NCBI RefSeq assembly: GCF_021917145.1
Contig: NW_025813755.1
Span: forward strand, 116,242-180,241
DNA: 64,000 bases
Reading direction: 5' to 3'
DNA from: Hypomesus transpacificus
Taxonomy: Eukaryota > Chordata > Actinopteri > Osmeriformes > Osmeridae
Below, piece by piece: positions 3,717 through 53,200 of this stretch. Under the pieces are notes generated by a model. The model saw only the letters and a program-made list of their open reading frames with translations, was not told the origin of the DNA and made no database searches. Each line of letters begins with the position of its first letter. Within the stretch, counting starts at the first letter, position 1. The position numbers were made by a program, and so were the translations under genes.

Positions 3717-5630
3717 TTGCAGGTTTGTGTGTCTGTGTGAGTGTGGGTCTGTGAGGATCTGTTTACTTGCAATTCCCAGTTTACAGCACCAAACAGATCT
3801 TGTCAACTCAATTCCCCTATTTCTTGTTTATTAGTGCTGTACGCCTCTACGAACCTCATTTCTCATATTAAAGACATACTGTACGTTCAGAAACTTCTGG
3901 GATACAGAGCATGATTATCTGGACTGTTTCAAGCGTTCCCTGGCTCACAGTGTGTGTGCTGTTGTTTCAGCTGGACACCTTCACACACCTAATCTATGTA
4001 GTCAAGGTTGTCCGGGCACAGTGACCTCCGCAGTGGGCTTTCTCCCTGTCCCCAGCCTGTTTCACAGGCGTGACCGAGCTTCCCTTGGTCCACCTAATAT
4101 GTACCTCACATGTTGGCCTGATGTTCTGCAGAGCCTTCAGTGAGCTTGCTCCCAGGGAAGGGGTGACCCGCCCAGCTCCATGTCCACTATGGGAGGAGGG
4201 TTACACCGTGCATGAACAGCATTCACATATGGGGCTTCCGACTGACGTGCAAATGGGGATGGATGGACAGCGATGAAGGGAGAGAGAAGGGTGCAGATAA
4301 AAGTGGAGAGGGAGAGAGAAATAGGGGGAGATAGGCCAATATCGGCGGGGAGGGAGGGAGGGAGAGAAAGAGAGAGGGAGGCAATGATGGGTAGACAGAG
4401 GGGGAGAGGGGTGACAAAGAACAGCAGAGAGAAGTAGAGGGAGAGGGGCGGGTGGGGGCAAAAAAGGGGAGGGCAGGGGGAGAAAGATGAGAGGGTGGAG
4501 CCAAAAAGGGGGGAGACAGAGACAAAGAGAGGAAGAGGGTAAGAGAAAGGGAGACTAGAGAGGAAATGAAACATGCATGACGCGTGGCAAGCATCCAATG
4601 ACCTCTGGATATGAGAGCGTGGAGTGGGATGCCAGGCGCCTTAATATCACTCCAGCCCAGATAATGAGAGGAGTTACATCTTCATCGTACACACTCTGCA
4701 CACGGGGTCAGACTGCAAAACAGGTTCTGGAGCAGCACGTCCTATCAACACATATATCCTTATCTCCTTCTCGCTCCCTCCCTCTCTCTCTTACGCACAC
4801 ACACACACAGACACACACAAAGACAAGCAATGGCAAGTATTCTCCTTGGGACCATCATTTTCCAAAAAGGTCAAACAGCTGTTGATACAACGACAACACA
4901 TACACAAAGTTCACACACCACACACACACACACACGCTCCAGCTCACCAGTTACAGACTGGTTATGTCTAGCTTGCTGAGTGAGGGCTGTTGGCTGGGCT
5001 GGATGTGGTTGGCCAGCTTGCTGGGTCTAGATTAATGAGCGTGTGGTGGTCAGACAGAGGAGAGACTATTACAGTCCATCTGTAAACGTTTATGGGCTGG
5101 AGGGCAGAGAGAAGGAAGACAGAGGGATGGTGGATGATGGAGGGATGAACAGACCTTTACCTGTCAGCCATGACGTTCATTTATCACCTGTTGGGCCGGA
5201 GAGTTTGGAAGTGGCACAGCCAAAGAGGGGCTTGGAGAAGACCAGGAGGGAGGGCCAGAAGGAGGGAGAGAGCGGGAGAAAGAGGGCAAGAGGGAAAGAG
5301 GAAGAGAGAGAGATCGCGAGGGACGAGGGCTCGGTCCCACGGAGACCAGAAAGAATAAAACCCACAGAGAGAGATTTGATCAGTTTATGAAAATGGCACA
5401 AACCACCTCCCAGAAGATTTCCAACCAGGAGCCTCTCCCACCCCCAACATCCCCCTCGGAGGCCCTCACAGGAGGGGGAAGCCTGGGAAAAACCCAAGCA
5501 GGTCAGCTGGTAGAGATCCCCCACACTAAGAAATAATAACTAGACAGACAGGATGAATCTAGTTGGCTCTTATTTCAATCTCCTGTGTGTGTGTGTGTGT
5601 GGGGGGGGGGGGGGGTTGTATGTGAGAGAA

Positions 5631-6027
<397 letters not shown>

Positions 6028-6733
6028 TTAGTCTACGCGTACCCTTAGTGATGGTATGGCAACACATTCCTAACTGAATAGCTGCAAGGCATTTCCATCC
6101 AGTTTTACAAGACCCTCACATGCACACAAATACTATGGCTGCAGACAACAATAATAGATCACTTCAAATCAAACACACATGCAACACAGGTATTAACACA
6201 CAAGTGAGACTACACAAGGAAAATGAATTACAACACACATACGCACACTCACAGCTCTGAAGAGGCACAGCTGTAACTCCACTGCCCTCTGTTGGTTAAA
6301 CATTTAAACAACACACACTGTTGACTTACAGTAAAAGAAAACAACTATTATTTGTATAAAACCTTTAGTTTTATTGCTAAGCCTCCATCAATCAGGACAG
6401 TGCTGCAGCTAAACTGTTTATATGGCAGAAAACCAGGTATACACGGCTTGCAGTAGCCACCTACTGAGAGAAACATGCATTGACCCACAACCCTTGTACT
6501 AGGATCTGAACTGGATAGTTCTCCACCTAGCAACACGCCTTGTATTGGAGACAGGAACCCCTGCACTGCACAGCACACCCCAGCTTTAACAAACTACTCG
6601 AATAACATTTTGGATTTGGCATTTTAGACAATTAAGACACACACAACACAGAAAGGGGGGGAGGGGGGGTCACAGGCACACAAGCACACATGCATCATCC
6701 ACGCCACACACTCGTCTGAAGACATGTGGGGAT

Positions 6734-7016: not shown

Positions 7017-8746
7017 AAACATAAACTACGTGTTCACTCATTAATCAGGACCTGTGGTGATTACTATGGAAATAATTGGAGTATAAGAAGCAAATTGTTG
7101 GCAATCATTTGGAGAGCTTAGCGCTGGTGTGTGTAATTAGTTTGGCTGGGTGCGCCTGAGTAATTACAGAGCCAAAGTTAGTGGTGCTGCAAGCAGCGTG
7201 AAGGACTTCATTGACCATATTAGAGTCCACATAATCACGGACACAATTAAAGCCCCGCTATTTAGAACCTAACCACAGGATAAGCAGGAATGTCTGAGAT
7301 TTGAGACCATGCCATCGTTGAGATCTCAGCACTCTCCCTCAAGCATCTAGAGTTGCAGCATCTATCCAGAGGCGGCTGCTTCTGCACACATTTACCTCAG
7401 GACTAACCCGTTCTTAGAATCGGGTTGAGCTCCAGTGTCATAATAATGCAATTCATTACACCTTAAACCCATTAAACCCAGCCAGCCATTCAGTCAGGCC
7501 CAGAGTCTGATGAGGCAGCAGCATGTGTGGCTGGCGAGCAACATAGGTGACCTCTCTGTGATTGCGTGTCCTACACAGTCTGAGTACAAAGCAGTTGCCC
7601 TTGAAAAGGCCTCACGCACTCCAAGGCAGGCTCAGCTCTCTGGCCAATTGGAAAGGGGCTCCTGGCAATGTCATCCTCTCTTTCCCTGTAACAAAGCCAA
7701 GTGAACAGGAATTCTGTGTGTGCGAGTGTGTGCCCACTATGGTGCGTGTTTGAGTGTGAGTGTGTGTGTGTGTATGACTAAATACATGGCTGCGTGTGTG
7801 TGTACGTGAGTGTGTATGCGTGCGTGCTCATGCCTGGGAGGGGGAGCTGTGAAATGACCACACCTCTGAACACATGAGCATGGTCAAGGTGACTTCACCT
7901 CTGCGTAGCTGTTGCAGCAAACCTGATCAGAAACAAGATGTTTCACACGGTCCCATGGATGTCCTGCAGCCATGCCCCCTCACCCCATACACAATGTCCC
8001 TCTGCTCTCTGGTGTACTCCACAGTCAATCACTCAATCAAATGTATTTGTACAGCCCCATACATCCCTCCGCAGACAGACTCAGATTGTGGTACAACGCT
8101 CAGGTACCAGAGATGACGTCAGGATTGCGGGCATCTGATCCTGGACCATGATGGAATTCACAACAGTATTAGCAGGAATACAGACAGGGAATTCCTGAGG
8201 CACACCATGTATTATTGCTAAGATATATGAAAGTTGCAATAGATTAGATTTTTTCGGTATAAAGTGTTGTCCCTTGTAAACATGTTGAGAGAGTGCCCTT
8301 TGAGAACAACACAAACATCTCAGTTCCAGTGGAAAGTAAACGTAGCATTTTTGGAGTGTAACGTTACATTCCAGCCCATTGTGTTCCAGCAATCCTGTTT
8401 CCAGCCATTTGCCTTTGGTGAGGCAACCTTTGCTTCCTTGTTTATATTGTCAAACCACTGTGACACAAGCGATTTGGAGGAAAATGTGAAAATTCTGGCA
8501 ATAATTGGGGGTTCTATTTCTCCTATTTAAAATGATTTTATATTATTACATACTGCAGCTGTAATGCTTTTAGTGATGGTCAGGTGATGGCTGGAAAGTT
8601 GGACCACCAAACACTGCAACTTTGGTACTCTGGTTATGGCCATGACAAGAATGGATTTATGTGAATCCCAGTTTAAATGTACGGCTGCAGTCATTTGCTG
8701 TGGCCTTGGTCCTTTTGTCTCTGGCTCAAAGGGAGGGAGGGAGGGA

Positions 8747-8881
<135 letters not shown>

Positions 8882-9649
8882 GAGGAGGTGGGGAGGGAAG
8901 GATGTAAGAGAGAGGGAGAGATGGATGGGGAGGGGGAAGGAGGCGACAGACGAGTGTGATGCAGGGGTGGCTGGAGCTGTCGGCAGGGAGGGACTGTGGC
9001 AGATGCATTACCGCCGACATCTCCATCCCTGCTGACACTGGCCTGCCCCACACACACAGACACACACACAGACACACACACACCAGCATGCACACACACC
9101 CCACACACACAATTACTGTTTCCACGTCCATCCCTCTAGACTCAAACCCTCTCCGCACACTCAGACACACACACTGGGACACACACACACACAGAGCACA
9201 CGTTGACACACACACACATGGCCAGGCTGATTAAAACCAACGGTTTGGATGGCTCCTCACCAGGCACAGGGGGTAACGACTGTCCACTTTTTCCTATCAG
9301 CCCCCTGCCTGGGCCAACACCCCCTTTTACACACACACACACATGTACACACACCCATTCCTCCATCCCTCTTTTCCCCTCCCATCCTCCTCTCTCGCCC
9401 ACACACCTCCCTCCGAAAGCAGGGAAAATGTCATGCCGGCAGGGGGTGTCGCTCTGGTCCTCCGGAGAGCAATAAAGTCTGATTGGAGTTAAAACAGTTG
9501 GTCAGGCACTCCACCCTGGCATCTGCTGAGTTACACACATGAAGCCTGTCATCTGTGAAATAGAAGCTGGGATGGGAGGATAGGGGAAAGGCCAGAGAGA
9601 GATGGAGGGAAGGAGGGAGGGAAGAAAATAGGATAGAACAAGGCAGTGA

Positions 9650-19283: not shown

Positions 19284-21808
<2,525 letters not shown>

Positions 21809-24583: not shown

Positions 24584-25138
24584 TCAGTAAAGGTCACTGA
24601 GGCCTGCGGTCTTGCGGGCTTTCTGCATGAGGGCTCGGAGCTGGAACTGCTTCCTGGAAAGCAGGCGGACATGCTGACGGGGGGGGGGGGAGAAGAGAGG
24701 CGTTACAAAACCATAAAACACACCTCTGCAGGATGCGACCTTGAAATAAAAGAGCTTGTGTCTGTCTGTGTGTATGCATCACCTTGAGGAAGACCTCCAG
24801 GTCGATGACTCCCCTGCGCAGCGCCTCTCCCAGGTAGAAGATGGTGTCCTCGATGGCGTTCTCCTCGGCGTACAGGTTCAGGATCTGCTTGTAGAGGGGC
24901 GCCGTGGGGACGATGACGTCGTCGATGTCGTTGTTTTCCGACTGGTTCTCCATCTTCTCCAGGGCCTCGCTCAGCTCCTCATCCTTCTTCTTAAGCAAGT
25001 CAATGTTCCGGTCCACCTCGGACTTCACACAGGCAAATTGGACGATGAGATATTGACAACACGATGATACTGAGACAATGAGTACGGTATTGGGTGAGGT
25101 CAGACGAGATAGAGAGAGAGGGAGAGAGAGAGGGAGAC

Positions 25139-25170
<32 letters not shown>

Positions 25171-28100
25171 AGGGAGAGAGAGATGGAGGGGCCTCACCAC
25201 TTCCTGGTCCAGGCGAGTGACCATCTCCTCTAGCTTCTGGTGGCCCTTCTTCAGGTCCTCCTCGGTCCTCTTCAGAGCGTCCAGCTCAGCCTGGGCCCGG
25301 TCCATCTCCTCCTTCATCCTCCAGCGCAGCTTGTCGCTCACCGCTGAGATCAGAGAGGCACGGATGGTGTCTTCACCGATGGTCCCATCCCTGCTAGGAC
25401 CTGGGGGGGGGGGGGGGGTAGACGACACAAGATAAGTCTTATTAGCTTAAAATGCTAGACAACAACACAAGCTTCACTCATCTCTAACTGTTAGTACACC
25501 GGGAGGATTAGGTGTCCTTGTTTGGAGATTGGTGATTGGTGCAGGTGATTGAGTCTAGTGCCACAGGACAGTAGGTTGACGAACCAGAGACAGACTGGAG
25601 CATGGGACAGACATGGGACAAAGATGGGCCAGGAATAGGGACATAAGTGAGCCAGGGACAGAAAGGGTCAAGAACAGACCTGTGTCCCTGCTCAGGTCTG
25701 TGTTCAATATCAAAAGCAGCAGGCTGGAGTCAGCATTGTGAATGTCATAGTTAATCTCAGCTCGGAACACTGACGGTTCGGCAGGCAACCTTATCTCTCC
25801 TCCACTCTTCCCCGGCTCCTATATATAGGAGCGCTACCAAAACACCCCGCACACACTGATCTGGAGCCAGCTTCGCGTGTGCCGTCCCTCATCATCAACA
25901 GGCTGTGGGTGGAGGCAACTGATCCCAGGTCTGGGGTTACAAGCCTCGCCCTCCCAGGTCTTATAAATAGCCCAGAGTGAGGAGGGGCGTTGTGATGAGA
26001 GGAGCTGGGTGGTGGCCGGGTACTTTGGCGTTTGGACCCCCCCCCCCTTCACTCTTTGGCCTTTTGTGGCCCCCACTCTGGTTACAGCCACGACCTTTCC
26101 AAGGCTGCCGGGCACTGCAGAGGGGTCATGCCGTGGTGGTTCTGACCCAGAAAGAAAGGCTATGGTGTGGGACCAGGGTCACGAAAAAGGTCAAAGGGCC
26201 ATGAATGATAGAGGCATTGGCCATCGAATCTATCACTGACCTTACACTGCTTGGGTCTCCTCATTAAAAGGCATACTGACTCTTAACCTTCTTACCTAGT
26301 AGTTAATACATGTTCTGAAGCTCAAGTGTAATAGTAAACCATATTCTTCTACTGTTGGGTGGATATGCAGAGTGGTGGGCTTGCACTGAGTTATTCAAAA
26401 CCCCACCTCCTCTAACCAGGAAGTGGTGTGACTGCATACATACCGACGTTGGAGACGGGAGGCTGGGGGGTGTAGTGTGTAGGGCCACCAGTGGCAGGGT
26501 AAGAGTTTCCTCCAGGATACTGATAGGCTGGGTAACCACTACACACAATAACAGACATGTTATAGTTACATACACACACGCTCTATTCTACAACGTATAC
26601 AACAATGTATAAATGACATGACCCCCCAAAAATATAAATCCTAATTTCATTCACGTCAAGATGCAATGCCATTTCAAAATCTTCAATATCTCTGAGATTT
26701 AAACCAAGGGCTAAGACCATAGAGGAGAGTGTGTGCAAAAGGAGTAGCAAGCTCATCGTGAGAATTTTTGTTTTACCAAGTAGATTGACAGAGATATGTC
26801 TGTGTTACCAGGAAGCTTACGTAACCACATACATGTCAGAACTGGTTTGAGGAGAGTGAGATGCACAGTGTAGGTGCAGGAAGGAGGACAGAGAGGGGGT
26901 TGACAGACAGCTTACCCTGGGTTGGGGTTTGGACCATAAGGTGAGACTGCTGGCATACCAGGCATGTAGGATGCTGTTGAAGGGGACAAAAGGTACAGTC
27001 AGAGCTCAGCTGACCAACGCAATCTACTTCTTACTCAGTGTGCGAGCGCCGTCTGGTGTCAGATGATGGAACTACACGTCATTAATAAAAGCTTTTCTTT
27101 AACGTGTATTCATGTGTTGGATTAGCAGGCATTAATACAAAGCAACACACGGGGGGAGAGCACCCAAATGCTCTACCACGGATATATAACTCGTGAGCCC
27201 ATGAGCCACTGATTTACGAACACATTCAAGTGTAAAAGTAGTCTTTTTGGGGGAGGACTTAGCATTCACATTACAGAGTGAGCGTTAGAGGGAGAAATGA
27301 CTGACGGTTTGGGGGTCCTGCCGCCTGGAAGGCTTGGTAGGGGGCCTGGGTGGTGGGCCGGGAGAAGACGGGGGGCTCCTCCCCAAACACGACGATCATC
27401 ACCTGGATCAGGCCGTACAGGTCTGACTGGGGCTGGGGGGAACACACACTCACACAGTCACTCTATGAGGTCTCAAACACGTGGTGTTGTGCTAATCCAC
27501 AAATGCACTGCGTTTCGTCTACTGTGAAACAAATCATGTTTATATTTCTACAGTTAGATTTACTCTGTTATATTCAAAGTCAGATTTAAAAATTCTTCAT
27601 TCATTTATTCAGAAATTTCATAGCTGCTCTTGAGTGAACTTCTACATTTTTACTGAAAGACACGAGATTCCTTCAGCATCAATAATGTGAACTGCATTGA
27701 AATACACAACATTCCATTAAAATGTTGTCAAATGTTTATGACTTGGGTTTACTGTAAGTTGTTGACTGCTTTTACATCATGCCTGACGAAAGACAATGAA
27801 AGAGTTGTAAGGCATTGCAACATCCTTTTTACATACGTGTTTCCACTCGTGAAGGTAGGGCAGGTAGATCTTGCCGTTGGCGTCTATGTGTTTGCCAGTC
27901 TTGATCATCATAGCACTGGTGGGCTTGACAAAGCAAATGGGAGGGTTGTAGGGATACGTGTCCAGGAGCCAAAGACACACTGGGATGTTGTAGACATTGC
28001 CTGTCAGAAGGAAACAGTGCAACATATATCATCAAAAAAACACAGGTAACCGTAGAAACTGAAACAAGCAAAAAAAATCACTACAAAGTGGTTTTCATAG

Positions 28101-28856
28101 TACTGTTTTTTTCTTTTCTATATTTTGTTTTCAATCAACTGAGACTCCACCTCTACCACCATACCTCTGTAGCTCACTGGCACTGTCCCAGTCAAACTCA
28201 TCAGGTCTCTTGTGGAGCCATCATTGAACACTGAAAGAGAGAGATTGACAAAGACTATTAGCTGTGTAGGCTGGAACATTGTGATGAGCAAGTTCGCCAG
28301 GGAACTACAGCCACGGTTGGGACATGAATTAACTTTACCATAGGCGTCCATGACAGGTTTCAAGTCTTTATATTGGGATATGACATTGGTTATCTCTCGG
28401 ACAGTCAAATCTCTGTATTTGTATTGCTGAAAAACAGAAAGACAAACATAACATGAGTTGCTTAGCTAGCAAACATTATCACTCACTGTTTACGGTTTCA
28501 CTGGCTTTATACATGTTACATACTAGTATTAGTTTGCTTAGTAACTAGATCGGAAGCAATGTTCTGGAAATACATTGATGTTACAACCCCAAATAACCTA
28601 GTTGCTAGCTACACACGTTTGTCTTTTACACGTAATTCCACTTGAGCACAAAAGTTGTCATAAATGACTTCCCTAGCTAACCTGAGCTAACCTGGCGTGT
28701 TTAATATGCTCGAAGAGTCGCTGCAGGCTAACAGTTGGCTAGTAGCAACCTATTGCCAATTGTTAAGCCTATTGATGTAGTTATTTGTGTCAGATCCTAT
28801 TTTTGATTTCTCACCTTCAGCATTTTCTTCAGGGCACCTTCGTTGACAACTGCCAT
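24584..28856 (-). CDS. tsg101: Tumor susceptibility 101, ESCRT-I subunit
   Basis: Ten exons on the minus strand (28815-28856, 28339-28426, 28165-28230, 27837-28000, 27306-27432, 26916-26973, 26444-26538, 25198-25400, 24783-25022, 24584-24673) join in frame to 1173 nt, or 390 residues, the same as human TSG101. The product is the ESCRT-I subunit that binds ubiquitinated cargo and PTAP motifs for multivesicular-body sorting, budding and abscission. The UEV domain spans about 1-145, with the PTAP-pocket tyrosines at 64 and 69 and no catalytic Cys. A Pro/Gly/Tyr-rich linker covers about 146-213, a coiled coil about 235-312, and the C-terminal steadiness box about 330-390. An internal PTAP lies at 320-323, as in mammals. 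It converges with ldha, the arrangement seen in mammals. Confidence 0.96.
25815..25832. repeat. 18-bp perfect palindrome in a tsg101 intron
   Basis: GCTCCTATATATAGGAGC is its own reverse complement. It lies in the intron between the linker exon (26444-26538) and the coiled-coil exon (25198-25400). No function is assigned. Confidence 0.8.
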
Positions 28857-29896
28857 GGTTGGTGATATGATAGTACGTCTTCTTCCCAATGAACTATAGC
28901 AAGCTAGCGAGCTAGCTAATGCTAAGCAGGTGTTGGATTGCCAACTAGCAAGCCCAGCCCAGGGCCCGGAACTATGTAGAACAAGGCCCGTCGGTGATCG
29001 CAAAAGTAAGACCAGCTGAGTTCTATAGAATAAAACTGTTTTATTTATATTTTCGTATTGTCCTGTCGGCCAAGCGGTCTAAGTTTATGAAAAAATCTCA
29101 TAAATGTCACGATAAAAAATTCCAGCTGCTGCGATTGAGGTGGTCAACAACAACAATAGAGCTTTTCCTGTTGCCCTACCATACTGTATCCGGTCCTCTT
29201 GTTACACATTCCGTGTAACAAAAGGACCAGTGTTGAGGACCAGGAATCAGCTCTCAACACTCAAATCATTAGGGATCAGGGAATCAATAAACTCATAAAC
29301 TTATTCAGGATCCTTCTCCACTGATAAATACTCACTACATATTTTTTTAAATAAAATATAGATTAGAAGTAAATAGATTAATTCATGCAAAAGGTTATCC
29401 CAATATTTATGGATTTATTGGAATATCAATGTACAATTTTACAACCACAAACAATTACAATACAAAATGTAAAACAATCCTACTGATGTCAATATGTACA
29501 CAAATTAGGTCAGGGGGGAAATGCTTTAATATCAAGCACTCTCATTATTCTTTGAAACAAGTGGGTTGTGAAGGTACACAATTATTTCAAAAGATAAAAG
29601 GAATGTCCTAAACCTTACTACAGTCTGTAGTGCAGTTATCAAGTATTCAGTTATCATACACTATCCAGGCAACGTATGTTTTATAATGCCTGTTTCATAA
29701 TGTTTTCACAATTAATGTTTTGTATCTTATTCTTACGATAGTATTATGACATTTCAGATACTCAAAATGCCGCAGCTTCAAGGCCATAGGATGGTGTCAA
29801 ATTGAGAAGAAAAAACCCTAATGCTTGTTATCACACGCTAGAAATATTCAATGGTATATTTAACATGCAATATTCCTCAGAACATAAAAAAAAATA

Positions 29897-31734
29897 CTAG
29901 CAGTTAGTTTCATTGTCTTCTTGGAAAGGAGGATCATCTTCACTGATCAAAGATATGCTGGAAGTTCCTGCATCTGAACTCGCCCCTGTGTATCTCTGGG
30001 ATTGTTGTGAACCTTGCGAAAAGAAATTTTCCGTAACTAAAAGTATTTTACACAAATGTGTCAGAGTTACAAGACATGAACACACTGTAAGACAGATGAG
30101 TCTTCTGAATGTTTTCTCAAGTTGAATCTGAGTTTTCTGAACCTTGCTCTCATATCTAGCTGGATGAGGCTTGCTTATCAGTCTCTGCATTTATCTAGTG
30201 CAGGGTCAGAGATGTTTGTGCAAGTGCGTGTGTGCGTGTGTATATGTGCGTGTGGTCGGAGGGTGGTGAATGTGTAATTGTGTGTGAGACTCACAAGTAG
30301 CTTGATCAGGTTCCACACCCGGCCTAATACACAAAGGAGGAATCTCTCCAAATATTGCAGACATCACTTGGACCAGGCTGAACAGATCACACTCAGTCTG
30401 AAAAGGGTGCAGAGACTTGTTTAAATGGTGTCAAAATAAACACGTTGTCCTGTATCCTGACATAGGATGCACGACAACATGCATCTATGACTATGCAAGT
30501 CTGTTGAGTCATAGATGTGACCACATCCAGGCTGAGAGACGTGAATTACACAACGCAACTCATCAAGTTTAGTCAGTGTTCTCATGGTAAGTAAACCATA
30601 GCAGACCCCAACAATGCTTTTTAAAACCTTTTTCCAATTTTGAGTGCATGCTACGTGAGACATGATCACCTTTAAAATGATTGAGCACAGTACACTCTCT
30701 GCAACATACAAAGGTTGAACATTGCACCCACGTGTTTCCACTCCTCTAGGTAAGGTAGAAGGACTTCTCCATTGCTGTTGATGTGTCTGCTTCTCACAAT
30801 CATCATCTCCTGGGTAGGTTTAACATAGCACATGGGAGCCGACCCCGGGTAACTCTCCTCCAACCAAAGTTGCACTGGGATGTTATACTTTTGACCTACA
30901 CCAAAGACAATGAAACAAATTGGGACACTGAATCTCTAAATACTCAAATTAATATGCTTCATTTTCAAAATTGTTCTAAGATCTAATAGAGAATAATGGA
31001 CCATAATAGGGAACTGAGGTTGGCTTGCAACAGAAGTCGTTTGTTTCTATATGGGAGAGTGAAATGGACAGTATGGCTTTGTGGTGCTTATAGTGTCATT
31101 AGTCAAAGAGGGTGATGTCATGCAAGATACACAGACACAGTTCCTGGTTACCATTAAACGTGACAGGAATGGTTCCTGTTAGGCTCATCAAGTCCCTCAC
31201 ACTTCCATCATTGAAAACTGGAAAAGCAAGACAGTCAGTTTGTCATTGTATATGTTGGTTCACAAAATGCCATACAACTCCTGACAGATCACGTCTAAGC
31301 ACAAGACAGTCCGTACAGTATAGGTCATAATCGAGTAAAAACAGGAAGATACTCACCATATTTATCCATCATGGCCTGGAGACCTTTGCACTGGGAAAGT
31401 ACAACCCATATTTCTAATGCAACGTGTTTCCTGTGATTATAAGTCTAGATAGAAGGAAGTACGTGTGTCAGGCAACACAAATGAGTCAAAGGTTTTGACA
31501 ATGTCAACTTATGGAATACATAACTCTATCCCATAGGGACTGCCCATTTGTTTTGATGGGATCAAGTACCCTGTTTAGTAGAAAAACGGAATAAACATAC
31601 ATTTACCAGCTGTTATTGCTATTCACCTGACAAGAATACAGTATTCAGTTAAATACAACACGTCTATTTTCAAACAAATAGACTCTTACCTTAGGTATCA
31701 TTTTCCGTAGTGCGTCCAGATTATCATTACCCAT
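29897..31734 (-). CDS. UEV-only TSG101-like protein (tandem tsg101 paralogue)
   Basis: Six exons on the minus strand (31690-31734, 31357-31444, 31152-31217, 30732-30895, 30295-30397, 29897-30012) join without a stop into 582 nt, or 193 residues. Exons 2-4 are 88, 66 and 164 nt with the same phases as the matching tsg101 exons, so this is an intron-containing duplicate. The UEV fold covers about 1-145 and has FNDGS, LMSLTGTIPV, YNIPVQLW and LPYLEEWKH. The E2 catalytic Cys is absent. The pocket tyrosine 63 of human TSG101 is Phe65 here, while the next one is kept as Tyr70. A Ser/acidic tail ending DNETNC replaces the linker, coiled coil and steadiness box. In mammals UEVLD occupies this slot, but no LDH domain is present and the sequence is closer to TSG101. 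Function is unknown: possibly ubiquitin or PTAP binding, or competition with ESCRT-I. Confidence 0.85.
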
Positions 31735-36183: not shown

Positions 36184-39790
<3,607 letters not shown>

Positions 39791-50200: not shown

Positions 50201-53200
50201 GGAGAAGAGAGGAGCTCTATGTACGCCTGGAGGGAGCCAGGGATCAGAGAGGAGCAGAATGGGAGACATAGAGCTGCCTGACCCGCCCTGAGAGCACCAG
50301 CCAAGGCCTGGCCGGACATGCACAGCCCCTGATAGCATTTCCTGTCCTGGGCTGTGGGGGCTGCCTGAGGAAGACTGAGAGTGCTGGGGAGGGCTGGGGT
50401 CAGAGAGGAGATAGCTTGCAAAAGGAGGGTTGGATAGTTGAGGAGGCCAGGTCAGGGATAGACAGGCCTAGGACCAATGCAGAGGCCAGTTCTTGAGGGG
50501 AGATGAGACCAGAGGTTGTGTAAGGGAAGGGCTCCAGCTGGGTCAGATGCTGGGGCCTATGTTTAGTGATTGTCTTTGTCACCCTCTCTGACACGCCCTG
50601 CGTTTGTGTGTGTGTGCTCAGGGACCTGGGCACCACCCTGGCCCACCTGCAGGTGCTGTGGATGTCTCGCTGCAGTCTGGTCGACCTGGATGGTATCCCT
50701 TCCTTCACCTCTCTGAAGGTACATAGACAGGGGCAACCACTTACCACCACATCTAATAGAAGACACTATTAGAAACATTTACATGCCCCAAAGTTTAGAA
50801 AAGGACTGTTTCAGTAATCAATACAACTCGAATCACTCATCACTTTCTTATCTCATAGCTCTGCCTTGAATCATGTGTGTGTGTGTGGGGAGTCAGGTGG
50901 CTGAGCGGTTAGGGAATCGGGGTAGTAATCTGATGGTCGATTCCCGGCCGAGCCGAATGACGTTGTGTCCATGGGCAAGGCACTTCACCCTACTTGCCTC
51001 GGGGGAATGTCCCTGTACTTACTGTAAGTCGCTCTGGATAAGAGTGTCTGTTAAATGTCTAAATGTAAATGTCTTCTCCCTGTCTCCCTGGGTCAGGAGC
51101 TGTACGTGGCCTACAACAGTATATCCGACCTGAGCCAGGTGAGTATGCTGGAGCACCTCCAGCTGCTGGACCTGGAGGGGAACGATGTGGCTGACCTGGT
51201 GCAGGTTCAGTACCTGGGCCTGTGCAGCGAGCTACGCACCCTCACCCTGGAGGGGAACCCTGTGTGTGTGTGCCCGCACCCCAACACCAGCCAGGTACAC
51301 GACAGGTTGTCGTTTACTCTCTACCTCCCTTCTCCCTAGACATAAGCCGCCTGCACCTCTATAACTAACACACGTCTGACAACGCTGAGTTATTCAAATT
51401 CAACTCCAACCGATTGCATTAGATAGGCCTGAGGTCATGTTATCAACAAGAATCATCCCAGTAAGCAGTAGTCTGATGCCAGTGATCTGCTGGTAGCCGC
51501 TAGCCAATTATGCTATCCATGATCATGCTGTTCAATTGGCTATTTGGGACCGAGATTTTGTGTGTGCATGTGGAAGTGTTTGTGTTTGTGTGAATGTTTC
51601 GCCGCTGTGTCATTTGGTGTGTGTGTGTGTGGAAGGATTGGAGTCTGTGGGATGAGATTAGCCAGCCTCTCTTGTGTTTGCCGGCCCCAGCCTGCTGTGT
51701 TCAGGCTGTGAGCCATGCCTGTCCCCCATGCCTCCCTCACGGGTCCTGCAGATAATAGCCCAAATGCAATTACTCTGTTTGGAGACATGAAAGGGCCCTG
51801 TGGTATCCCATGTTGCTGCCAAGGAGGTCTGGATCAGTCAGTACAGGACATGGGGACACGGCCAAACACCTTACACCCTGTCTTTTGTTCTTTCGCATGT
51901 TCTCTCTGTCGCTACCATGCTGCGATGTAGCGCTACAGCTTCAGGCGTGGACGGATCGATTGGAGTGTGGTGTATATATGCTTCCTGTTTGTTTCCTTGT
52001 CTGGTGCCTTAGGAAGCTGCATGTGGCTTCTGGGGCAGAGTGAGTATGGTGGTGTTTGCCAAGCAGCAGCAGGAAGGAGAAAACTGGGGAAAATGAGGGG
52101 AAGATGCTGATCAGAAAATGCATTAGGCTCGTTCTTTGGGAGGTGGTTGTTGCGTTCTCCTCTGTCCAAACTAGCATCCCTTTATAAACAGTATTTTTTG
52201 GGGTTCCCTCTCTCTTTATCTGTCGTTGTCCTTCGCTATCGCTGTCTCTCTCTTCCCCCTCGCCCTATCGTTTTCTCACTTTCTCACTCACTATCTCCGC
52301 CCCTCTCGCTCTCGTTCTCTTTTCGGCCTTTCGGCTCAGGCTTTTTCCCCCATTTTCTTATCGTTCTTCCTTTCAACCCTCTCTTCCTCTTCCTCCCTCT
52401 TCTCAGTCTCTGTGGTTTGGTGAAGGGGGCGAGTACAGCTCTGATTGGATCACTCAGCAGCCCCAGTGCTTCTACTGGCTGTTCTCTGTGTACGACTCTT
52501 TCTCGCTCTCTCTACTGCTCTTTCTCGCTCTAATGCCATCTCCCTCTTTCTCTCTACTGCTCTCTATTTGTTCCCTCTCGATCTTTCCTACTACCCCCCC
52601 TCTCCCCCCCCCCCTTTCTCCCCCCCCCCCCCTTCTGTTGTCTCCCTACTGATAAAAGACCAGAGCCGAGTACAAAGTGCATATTGTCTGCATTAACGCT
52701 CACATCTTGGCACACCCAGCCCTTGTTTTTGGCCTCCCTTGGCTTCCTTAGCAGGCTAATTGTTAAACTAACTGACTAAGCGGATCTACCGTTCCCTCAA
52801 TGGTTGGTGTAAGGGGACTGTGATAATATAGGTCGACCTTTTGACCCATCTCTCTCACTTGTGAAATCCAGATCCCAGGTCACACTGACTGGGTCAGGAC
52901 GTGGTGCGAGTCCAGACACACGCTCCCAGGCTTGTGTGTTCCTCTCAAGGCAACACAACCAGGAAGGATGGCCTGTCGCTTGATGATCTGCTATTCCTGT
53001 CAGTCACAGTACTCCATGTTTCTCCTCCTCTATGTTTCTCCTACCCTCTTCCCTGCAACTAGACCGGGTACTGCTACCGCTCGGCCGTAAGAGAGCTGGT
53101 CCCTCAGCTGCGTTTCCTAGACGATGTGTGGGCGGAGCAGGAGGTGGAGCGCGGCTCCAACAGCAGCTCCATGGAGGAAGACTGGGCTCTGCTCAGACAG

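What the first reader, a model, noticed from the sequence alone, without database searches (positions are those of the whole stretch)
29897..31734. Intact UEV-only TSG101 paralogue in the UEVLD slot
The six exons join to a clean 193-residue frame. Three exon lengths (88, 66, 164 nt) and all their phases equal those of the neighbouring tsg101. The protein stops after the UEV fold and a short Ser/acidic tail, with no linker, coiled coil or steadiness box and no LDH domain. In mammals this slot next to TSG101 holds UEVLD, a UEV-LDH fusion. This gene could be the pre-fusion state, a UEVLD that lost its LDH half, or a separate tandem copy. One PTAP-pocket tyrosine is Phe, so ligand binding may have changed. 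A free UEV without ESCRT-I assembly regions could act as a decoy or ubiquitin binder.
Basis: partly seen in the sequence, partly recalled or inferred. Interest (0 to 1): 0.75.

Follow-up and report, generated by a model that had tools for sequence, protein, structure and literature searches.

The report
Stand-alone UEV copy beside fish tsg101
Next to a normal tsg101 gene, this probably fish genome carries an intact-looking shortened copy that encodes only the ubiquitin-binding UEV domain plus a short tail; it looks more like a diverged tandem duplicate of tsg101 than a stage in the making of the mammalian neighbour gene UEVLD.

Summary
Six exons with GT..AG introns, minus strand 31734..29897, join to 193 codons with one Pfam match, UEV. 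Exons 2-4 (88, 66, 164 nt) and five intron phases equal those of the complete tsg101 next door. No UEVLD-type LDH domain was found nearby.

The 'UEVLD slot' interpretation is weak. The UEV is 54.5% identical to the window's TSG101, 47.6% to human TSG101, 35.2% to recalled human UEVLD. Likelihood joins it with the window's TSG101 under 4 of 4 models, but not significantly (AU of the UEVLD pairing 0.066-0.097). With a recalled zebrafish UEVLD, placement inside the UEVLD clade is rejected. Its outer neighbour is hras.

Residues 42-61, with the ubiquitin hairpin, change at 0 of 16 conserved columns (52 of 103 elsewhere); 6 of 12 PTAP contacts are changed, not one. Best reading: a tandem tsg101 duplicate reduced to a free UEV that may bind ubiquitin but cannot join ESCRT-I. 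Expression and function are untested; no other fish sequence was fetched. New variant of a known kind.

The parts
31690..31734 (-). exon 1 (ATG; 45 nt, ends phase 0)
   Evidence: MGNDNLDALRKMIPK, aligned to [14 protein letters not shown] of the neighbouring tsg101, whose exon 1 is 42 nt
31357..31444 (-). exon 2 (88 nt, ends phase 1)
   Evidence: same length and phase as tsg101 exon 2
31152..31217 (-). exon 3 (66 nt, ends phase 1): ubiquitin hairpin VFNDGS and strand LTGTIPV
   Evidence: same length and phase as tsg101 exon 3; residues 42-61 unchanged at 16 of 16 conserved columns
30732..30895 (-). exon 4 (164 nt, ends phase 0): UEV core
   Evidence: the only stretch with blastn similarity to the tsg101 locus at E below 0.1 (68.8% over 109 nt)
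30295..30397 (-). exon 5 (103 nt, ends phase 1): end of the UEV fold, altered PTAP lip (V141L, F142C, S143I)
   Evidence: tsg101 exon 5 is 127 nt and also ends in phase 1
29897..30012 (-). exon 6 (116 nt with TAG): Ser/Thr- and acid-rich tail, no clear counterpart in tsg101 or UEVLD
   Evidence: alignment; composition and chance of an open frame
29414..29419 (-). candidate polyadenylation signal AATAAA about 480 nt past the stop (others start at 29530, ATTAAA, and 29045, AATAAA)
   Evidence: motif match only
24584..28856 (-). complete neighbouring tsg101, ten exons, 390 aa: the likely parent gene
19838..21805 (+). classical L-lactate dehydrogenase (A/B type), opposite strand; not the LDH half of UEVLD
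   Evidence: pieces 67-88% to rabbit LDHA (45% for the piece that spans an intron) against 31-52% to human UEVLD-LDH; pieces 72-86% to human LDHB (45% for the intron-spanning piece)
36187..39673 (-). hras, outer neighbour of the UEV gene
   Evidence: four tblastn pieces, 80-100% to recalled human HRAS; C-terminus closest to HRAS of the three Ras ends tried

Best explanation
Origin: a tandem duplicate of tsg101 (partial, or truncated later), made in the ray-finned fish lineage (lineage inferred), keeping exons 1-5 and ending in a new sixth exon. Mechanism (inferred): a free, catalytically dead UEV that binds ubiquitin through the unchanged hairpin and strand 42-61 but cannot enter ESCRT-I, because it lacks the coiled coil and steadiness box. 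It would therefore compete with, or tune, Tsg101 at ubiquitinated cargo or HECT ligases. The PTAP groove is changed at 6 of 12 contacts, so that function is probably weakened or retuned. Shown: gene structure, domain content, pattern of residue retention. Inferred: lineage, expression, ubiquitin binding, competition. I put about 0.65 on the tandem-tsg101 origin and about 0.35 on the ubiquitin-competitor role.
For: Exons 2-4 of equal length and five equal intron phases, same strand, start codon about 2.9 kb from tsg101's. Closer to the window's TSG101 (79 of 145 identical) than to human TSG101 (69) or recalled human UEVLD (51). At the 26 columns where the window's and human TSG101 differ it matches the window's 12, human 2, neither 12 (sign test 0.013); UEVLD matches 4, 7, 15 (Fisher 0.017). 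The tree joining it with the window's TSG101 is best under 4 of 4 models, lnL difference 3.2-5.2. Third-codon-position excess (51, 42, 89 differences at positions 1, 2, 3) and LWL85 dN 0.39, dS 2.03, ratio 0.19 indicate past purifying selection. Residues 42-61: 0 of 16 conserved columns changed against 52 of 103 elsewhere; UEVLD changes 5 of 16 there, including N45K, and N45A impairs ubiquitin binding in TSG101 (PMC7073217, passage seen). Precedent for a free UEV interfering with Tsg101: TSG-5', residues 10-240, listed as inhibiting HIV budding (PMC10807055, table passage seen).
Against: The tree support is not significant: the pairing with UEVLD is not rejected at 5% (AU 0.066-0.097 for the quartet; the position outside TSG101 0.095-0.118 with five taxa), and the parsimony columns for the two pairings tie at 3 to 3. 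dS is saturated (NG86 undefined, YN00 failed), the ratio averages both branches and old time, and with a quarter of the divergence neutral 20.5% of simulations still had no stop, so recent loss of function is not excluded. Gene conversion with adjacent tsg101 could fake the affinity. The 42-61 stretch was chosen after looking. The promoter lacks CpG enrichment: o/e 0.48 against 0.66 at tsg101 and 0.42 for the window. The surface 98-115 around the vestigial active site, also a ubiquitin and HECT contact region (PMC9944984, passages seen), is changed at 10 of 17 conserved columns, so ubiquitin or HECT binding may be altered too. A trout study (PMC12603132, passages seen) reports one TSG101 orthologue in trout and, in those passages, no second UEV gene.
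Confidence: 0.5

Rival explanations
1. Old pre-fusion duplicate: the tsg101 copy that elsewhere was joined to an LDH gene to make UEVLD, surviving here unfused.
For: Same side and strand of tsg101 as UEVLD in human (human order recalled); Buljan et al. proposed such a duplicate (PMC2926785, passages seen); the topology is not rejected at 5%.
Against: No excess of residues shared with UEVLD (3 columns against 3 for the pairing with the window's TSG101, plus 6 shared with that TSG101 alone and 0 with UEVLD alone); skew 12:2 towards the window's TSG101; the fusion is placed on a branch with vertebrate genes, the recalled zebrafish UEVLD already has LDH, and a percid transcriptome paper lists uevld among oxidoreductase genes (PMC6504104, passages seen; a gene-list annotation only).
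Confidence: 0.15
2. A uevld copy (for example an ohnologue from the teleost genome duplication) that lost its LDH exons.
For: Position beside tsg101; intron phases shared with TSG101, as is also reported for UEVLD (PMC2926785, passage seen).
Against: 35.2% to recalled human UEVLD and 32.7% to recalled zebrafish UEVLD, against 54.5% or 53.3% (longer alignment) to the window's TSG101; placement inside UEVLD costs 33-34 lnL units, AU at most 0.0014 (which uses the recalled zebrafish sequence); it lacks UEVLD's N45K and G47S; tblastn with UEVLD-LDH gives nothing better than E 0.37 in 28.2-31.6 kb, and with LDHA nothing better than E 0.20 (at 35.7-35.9 kb) between tsg101 and hras.
Confidence: 0.06
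3. A decaying or unexpressed duplicate (young pseudogene) that still looks intact.
For: Fast divergence: 52 of 119 TSG101-conserved columns changed; no CpG-enriched promoter; tail of no known kin; 20.5% of simulations with a quarter of the divergence neutral still had no stop.
Against: Open frame, five canonical introns and good start context at a depth where fully neutral drift leaves no stop in 0.8% of simulations; changes are not spread evenly.
Confidence: 0.15
4. PTAP decoy: a free UEV that captures P(T/S)AP motifs of viral or cellular partners.
For: 6 of 12 contacts kept: T58, Y68, N69, I70, T92, M95; M95A impairs PTAP binding (PMC7073217, passage seen); TSG-5' precedent.
Against: D34G, Y63F, R64N, V141L, F142C and S143I change half of the contacts, more than in recalled UEVLD (4 of 12); S143 hydrogen-bonds with the peptide (PMC7650771, passage seen).
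Confidence: 0.14

Closest known systems
TSG101 / Vps23 (ESCRT-I subunit)
   Same: UEV domain, lengths of exons 2-4 and phases of introns 1-5, ubiquitin hairpin
   Different: No proline-rich linker, coiled coil or steadiness box; half of the PTAP contacts changed; new acidic tail
UEVLD (UEV3)
   Same: A UEV paralogue of TSG101 lying beside it on the same strand (human position and strand recalled; neighbouring gene per PMC2926785)
   Different: No LDH half; 35.2% identical to the recalled human sequence; 3 columns shared against TSG101
TSG-5' (artificial TSG101 N-terminal fragment, residues 10-240)
   Same: A free UEV without ESCRT-I assembly regions
   Different: A laboratory construct of human sequence, reaching past the UEV (PMC10807055 and PMC3766686, passages seen)
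RetroCHMP3 (shortened ESCRT-III duplicate that blocks virus budding)
   Same: Duplicate of an ESCRT gene as a possible dominant-negative
   Different: ESCRT-III, retrocopy origin; only its title was seen here, in a reference list, the rest is recalled

Membership tests
TSG101 / ESCRT-I subunit | UEV domain | tested here: met
   PF05743 137.5 bits; human TSG101 UEV structures, best E 1.3e-43
TSG101 / ESCRT-I subunit | Coiled coil and steadiness box for ESCRT-I assembly | tested here: not met
   Frame ends at codon 193; residues 146-390 of the window's TSG101 match only the tsg101 gene itself in the window at E up to 1
TSG101 / ESCRT-I subunit | P(T/S)AP-binding groove | tested here: inconclusive
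   6 of 12 contact residues kept; binding not testable
UEVLD | C-terminal lactate/malate dehydrogenase domain | tested here: not met
   tblastn with human UEVLD-LDH over the window: at E below 0.37 only the opposite-strand classical LDH at 19.8-21.8 kb
UEVLD | UEV branches with UEVLD | tested here: inconclusive
   Inside the UEVLD clade rejected (AU at most 0.0014, with an unverified recalled zebrafish sequence); pairing with UEVLD outside TSG101 worse but not rejected (AU 0.066-0.097; 0.095-0.118)
Ubiquitin-binding UEV | Hairpin V43-S48 with N45 | tested here: met
   V, F, N, D, G, S all kept; binding itself not testable
Catalytic E2 | Active-site cysteine and an E2 (UQ_con) Pfam match | tested here: not met
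   Leu at TSG101 Y110, which I recall as the active-site position; the only Pfam match at E up to 0.001 is UEV

The most novel reading that the evidence does not exclude
A natural, germline-encoded free UEV in fish that works as a dominant competitor of Tsg101: it keeps the ubiquitin hairpin while its PTAP lip and E3-facing surface were remodelled, perhaps under conflict with enveloped viruses that recruit ESCRT-I. It would be an ESCRT-I counterpart of RetroCHMP3.
Probability: 0.08. Interest if true: 0.8.

Novelty: new variant of a known kind. Interest (0 to 1): 0.4.

Why it matters
If expressed, it would be a natural separation of the UEV from the rest of TSG101, and a second fate, besides UEVLD, of a tandem tsg101 duplicate. 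It bears on the published duplicate-then-join model for UEVLD and gives a testable protein with the ubiquitin hairpin kept and the peptide site altered.

Tried and rejected
Considered and set aside. LDH half hidden nearby: with UEVLD-LDH no tblastn match better than E 0.37 in 28.2-31.6 kb; with LDHA none better than E 0.20 (35.7-35.9 kb) between tsg101 and hras. Residual tsg101 exons 6-10 beyond the UEV gene: none at E up to 1. Conserved introns that would mean a young duplication: no blastn match beyond exon 4 at E below 0.1. N-myristoylation of the MGNDNL start: set aside from recalled motif rules (no Ser/Thr at position 6), not computed. SPTY2D1, PTPN5, GTF2H1, KCNC1 and CSRP3 as neighbours: best tblastn E 0.47, but those queries were recalled or approximate fragments, so absence is weak evidence. 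The open frames between the UEV gene and hras and left of the LDH gene were printed but not searched against protein families. Relatives in viral contigs: 1 stretch matched a pattern, 0 confirmed. The bacterial promoter scan does not apply to a vertebrate gene and is not used. Columns dropped: the quartet uses the 145 columns of human TSG101 residues 1-145, so the one-residue insertion of the UEV gene and the tail are left out; the five-taxon test uses ungapped columns only (their number was not printed).

Literature: ten searches. In the rows listed I saw no report of a UEV-only TSG101 paralogue in fish; two searches listed only 25 of 39,943 and 15 of 72 papers. This covers the open-licence PubMed Central library held here only; genome annotation databases were not searchable, so such a gene may already be annotated. 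PMC12513931 was read in parts 1 and 2 of 3; of the other papers cited I saw passages only.

Full report
What is there. On the minus strand, six exons from 31734 to 29897 join to an uninterrupted 193-codon frame with GT..AG introns and phases 0,1,1,0,1. The product has one Pfam match at E up to 0.001, UEV (PF05743, 137.5 bits), and matches human TSG101 UEV structures, best E 1.3e-43. Immediately downstream on the same strand lies a complete tsg101 of ten exons, 28856..24584, 390 aa. Exons 2-4 of both genes are 88, 66 and 164 nt, and introns 1-5 have the same phases. Exon 1 (45 against 42 nt) and exon 5 (103 against 127 nt) differ in length, and exon 6 has no clear counterpart. Published trout tsg101 primers (PMC12603132, passages seen) match this tsg101 at 18 of 22 and 18 of 20 bases, the first across the exon 3/4 junction; the paper's siRNA does not match the coding sequence (7 of 19 bases differ). 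This fits a ray-finned fish; the species itself is not known here.

Is it more than chance? Over 146 aligned codons the two genes differ at 182 nucleotides (51, 42 and 89 at codon positions 1, 2, 3) and keep 80 residues. In 2000 neutral simulations to the same divergence 0.8% had no stop and none kept more than 59 residues; with half or a quarter of the differences the share without a stop was 5.4% and 20.5%. LWL85 gives dN 0.39, dS 2.03, ratio 0.19; NG86 dS is saturated and YN00 failed. This shows past constraint, averaged over both branches; it does not show present function.

Surroundings. The LDH gene at 19.8-21.8 kb is on the plus strand and of the classical A/B type: its pieces are 67-88% identical to rabbit LDHA, with one piece at 45% where an intron is spanned, against 31-52% to UEVLD-LDH, and 72-86% to human LDHB outside the intron-spanning piece. 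It is not a lost half of UEVLD. The other neighbour is hras, 39673-36187. In human the gene beyond UEVLD is SPTY2D1 (recalled). So the phrase 'UEVLD slot' rests on adjacency to tsg101.

Origin. Over 145 columns the UEV shares 79 residues with the window's TSG101, 69 with human TSG101 and 51 with recalled human UEVLD. At the 26 columns where the window's and human TSG101 differ it matches the window's 12 times, human 2 times and neither 12 times; UEVLD matches 4, 7 and 15 (Fisher 0.017). The tree joining it with the window's TSG101 is best under LG+G4, JTT+G4, WAG+I and LG+C20+G4, by 3.2-5.2 lnL units, but the alternative with UEVLD is not rejected (AU 0.066-0.097), and parsimony columns tie at 3 to 3. 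Adding a zebrafish UEVLD recalled from memory (not verified) rejects placement inside the UEVLD clade by 33-34 units (AU at most 0.0014) and leaves the position outside TSG101 open (AU 0.095-0.118). Buljan et al. 2010 (PMC2926785, passages seen) describe UEVLD as a tsg101 duplicate joined to an LDH-type gene, on a branch with vertebrate genes. Taken together a tsg101 duplicate in the fish lineage is favoured; an old pre-fusion duplicate is possible; a uevld without LDH is unlikely.

Which surfaces were kept? Of 119 columns identical in the window's and human TSG101 the gene changes 52. Residues 42-61, which hold the ubiquitin hairpin and the following strand, change at 0 of 16, against 52 of 103 elsewhere (Fisher 5e-5; stretch chosen after looking); UEVLD changes 5 of 16 there, including N45K. 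The region around the vestigial active site, 98-115, changes 10 of 17 (Fisher 0.20, so not a significant excess). Of the 12 PTAP-contact residues listed in PMC7650771 (passage seen), 6 are changed: D34G, Y63F, R64N, V141L, F142C and S143I. Kept are T58, Y68, N69, I70, T92 and M95. UEVLD changes 4 of 12. N45A and M95A are published mutations that impair ubiquitin and PTAP binding respectively (PMC7073217, passage seen); both residues are kept here. The same review reports that TSG101 with either mutation still rescued knockout cells, so neither site is needed for survival.

How it most likely works. Without coiled coil and steadiness box it should not be built into ESCRT-I; this rests on established knowledge of TSG101 (recalled) and on the absence of such exons. 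With the hairpin intact it should still bind ubiquitin weakly. A free UEV of this kind would compete with Tsg101 at ubiquitinated cargo or HECT ligases. The laboratory fragment TSG-5' shows that a free UEV can interfere with Tsg101 (PMC10807055 and PMC3766686, passages seen), though it does so through the PTAP motif, and that groove is here half changed. All of this is inference; expression, binding and any effect are untested. The promoter lacks the CpG enrichment of tsg101 (o/e 0.48 against 0.66, window 0.42), which would fit restricted expression or none.

Verdict. Observation confirmed, interpretation partly supported, new variant of a known kind. The weak points are the absence of other fish sequences (genome search did not complete in 12 of 12 tries), the recalled zebrafish sequence, the saturated dS and the unproved tail.

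Noticed in passing
36187-39673 (-): hras, coding pieces found by tblastn in four places, with an HRAS-type C-terminus ending CVVS
   Followed up: partly
51055-51336 (+): ORF with leucine-rich-repeat sequence (VAYNSISDLSQVSMLEHLQLLDLEGNDV...) that looks like LRRC56, the human neighbour of HRAS (printed; the identification is recalled, not searched)
   Followed up: no
19838-21805 (+): classical L-lactate dehydrogenase gene, pieces about equally close to rabbit LDHA and recalled human LDHB
   Followed up: partly
5570-6067 and 8527-9215: CT-rich microsatellite tracts that read as Ser-Leu repeats in mechanical ORFs
   Followed up: no
24783-25022 (-): the window's TSG101 keeps the internal PTAP motif (IVPTAPLYK), which a review places between coiled coil and steadiness box (PMC7073217, passage seen): a possible ligand for a free UEV
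   Followed up: no
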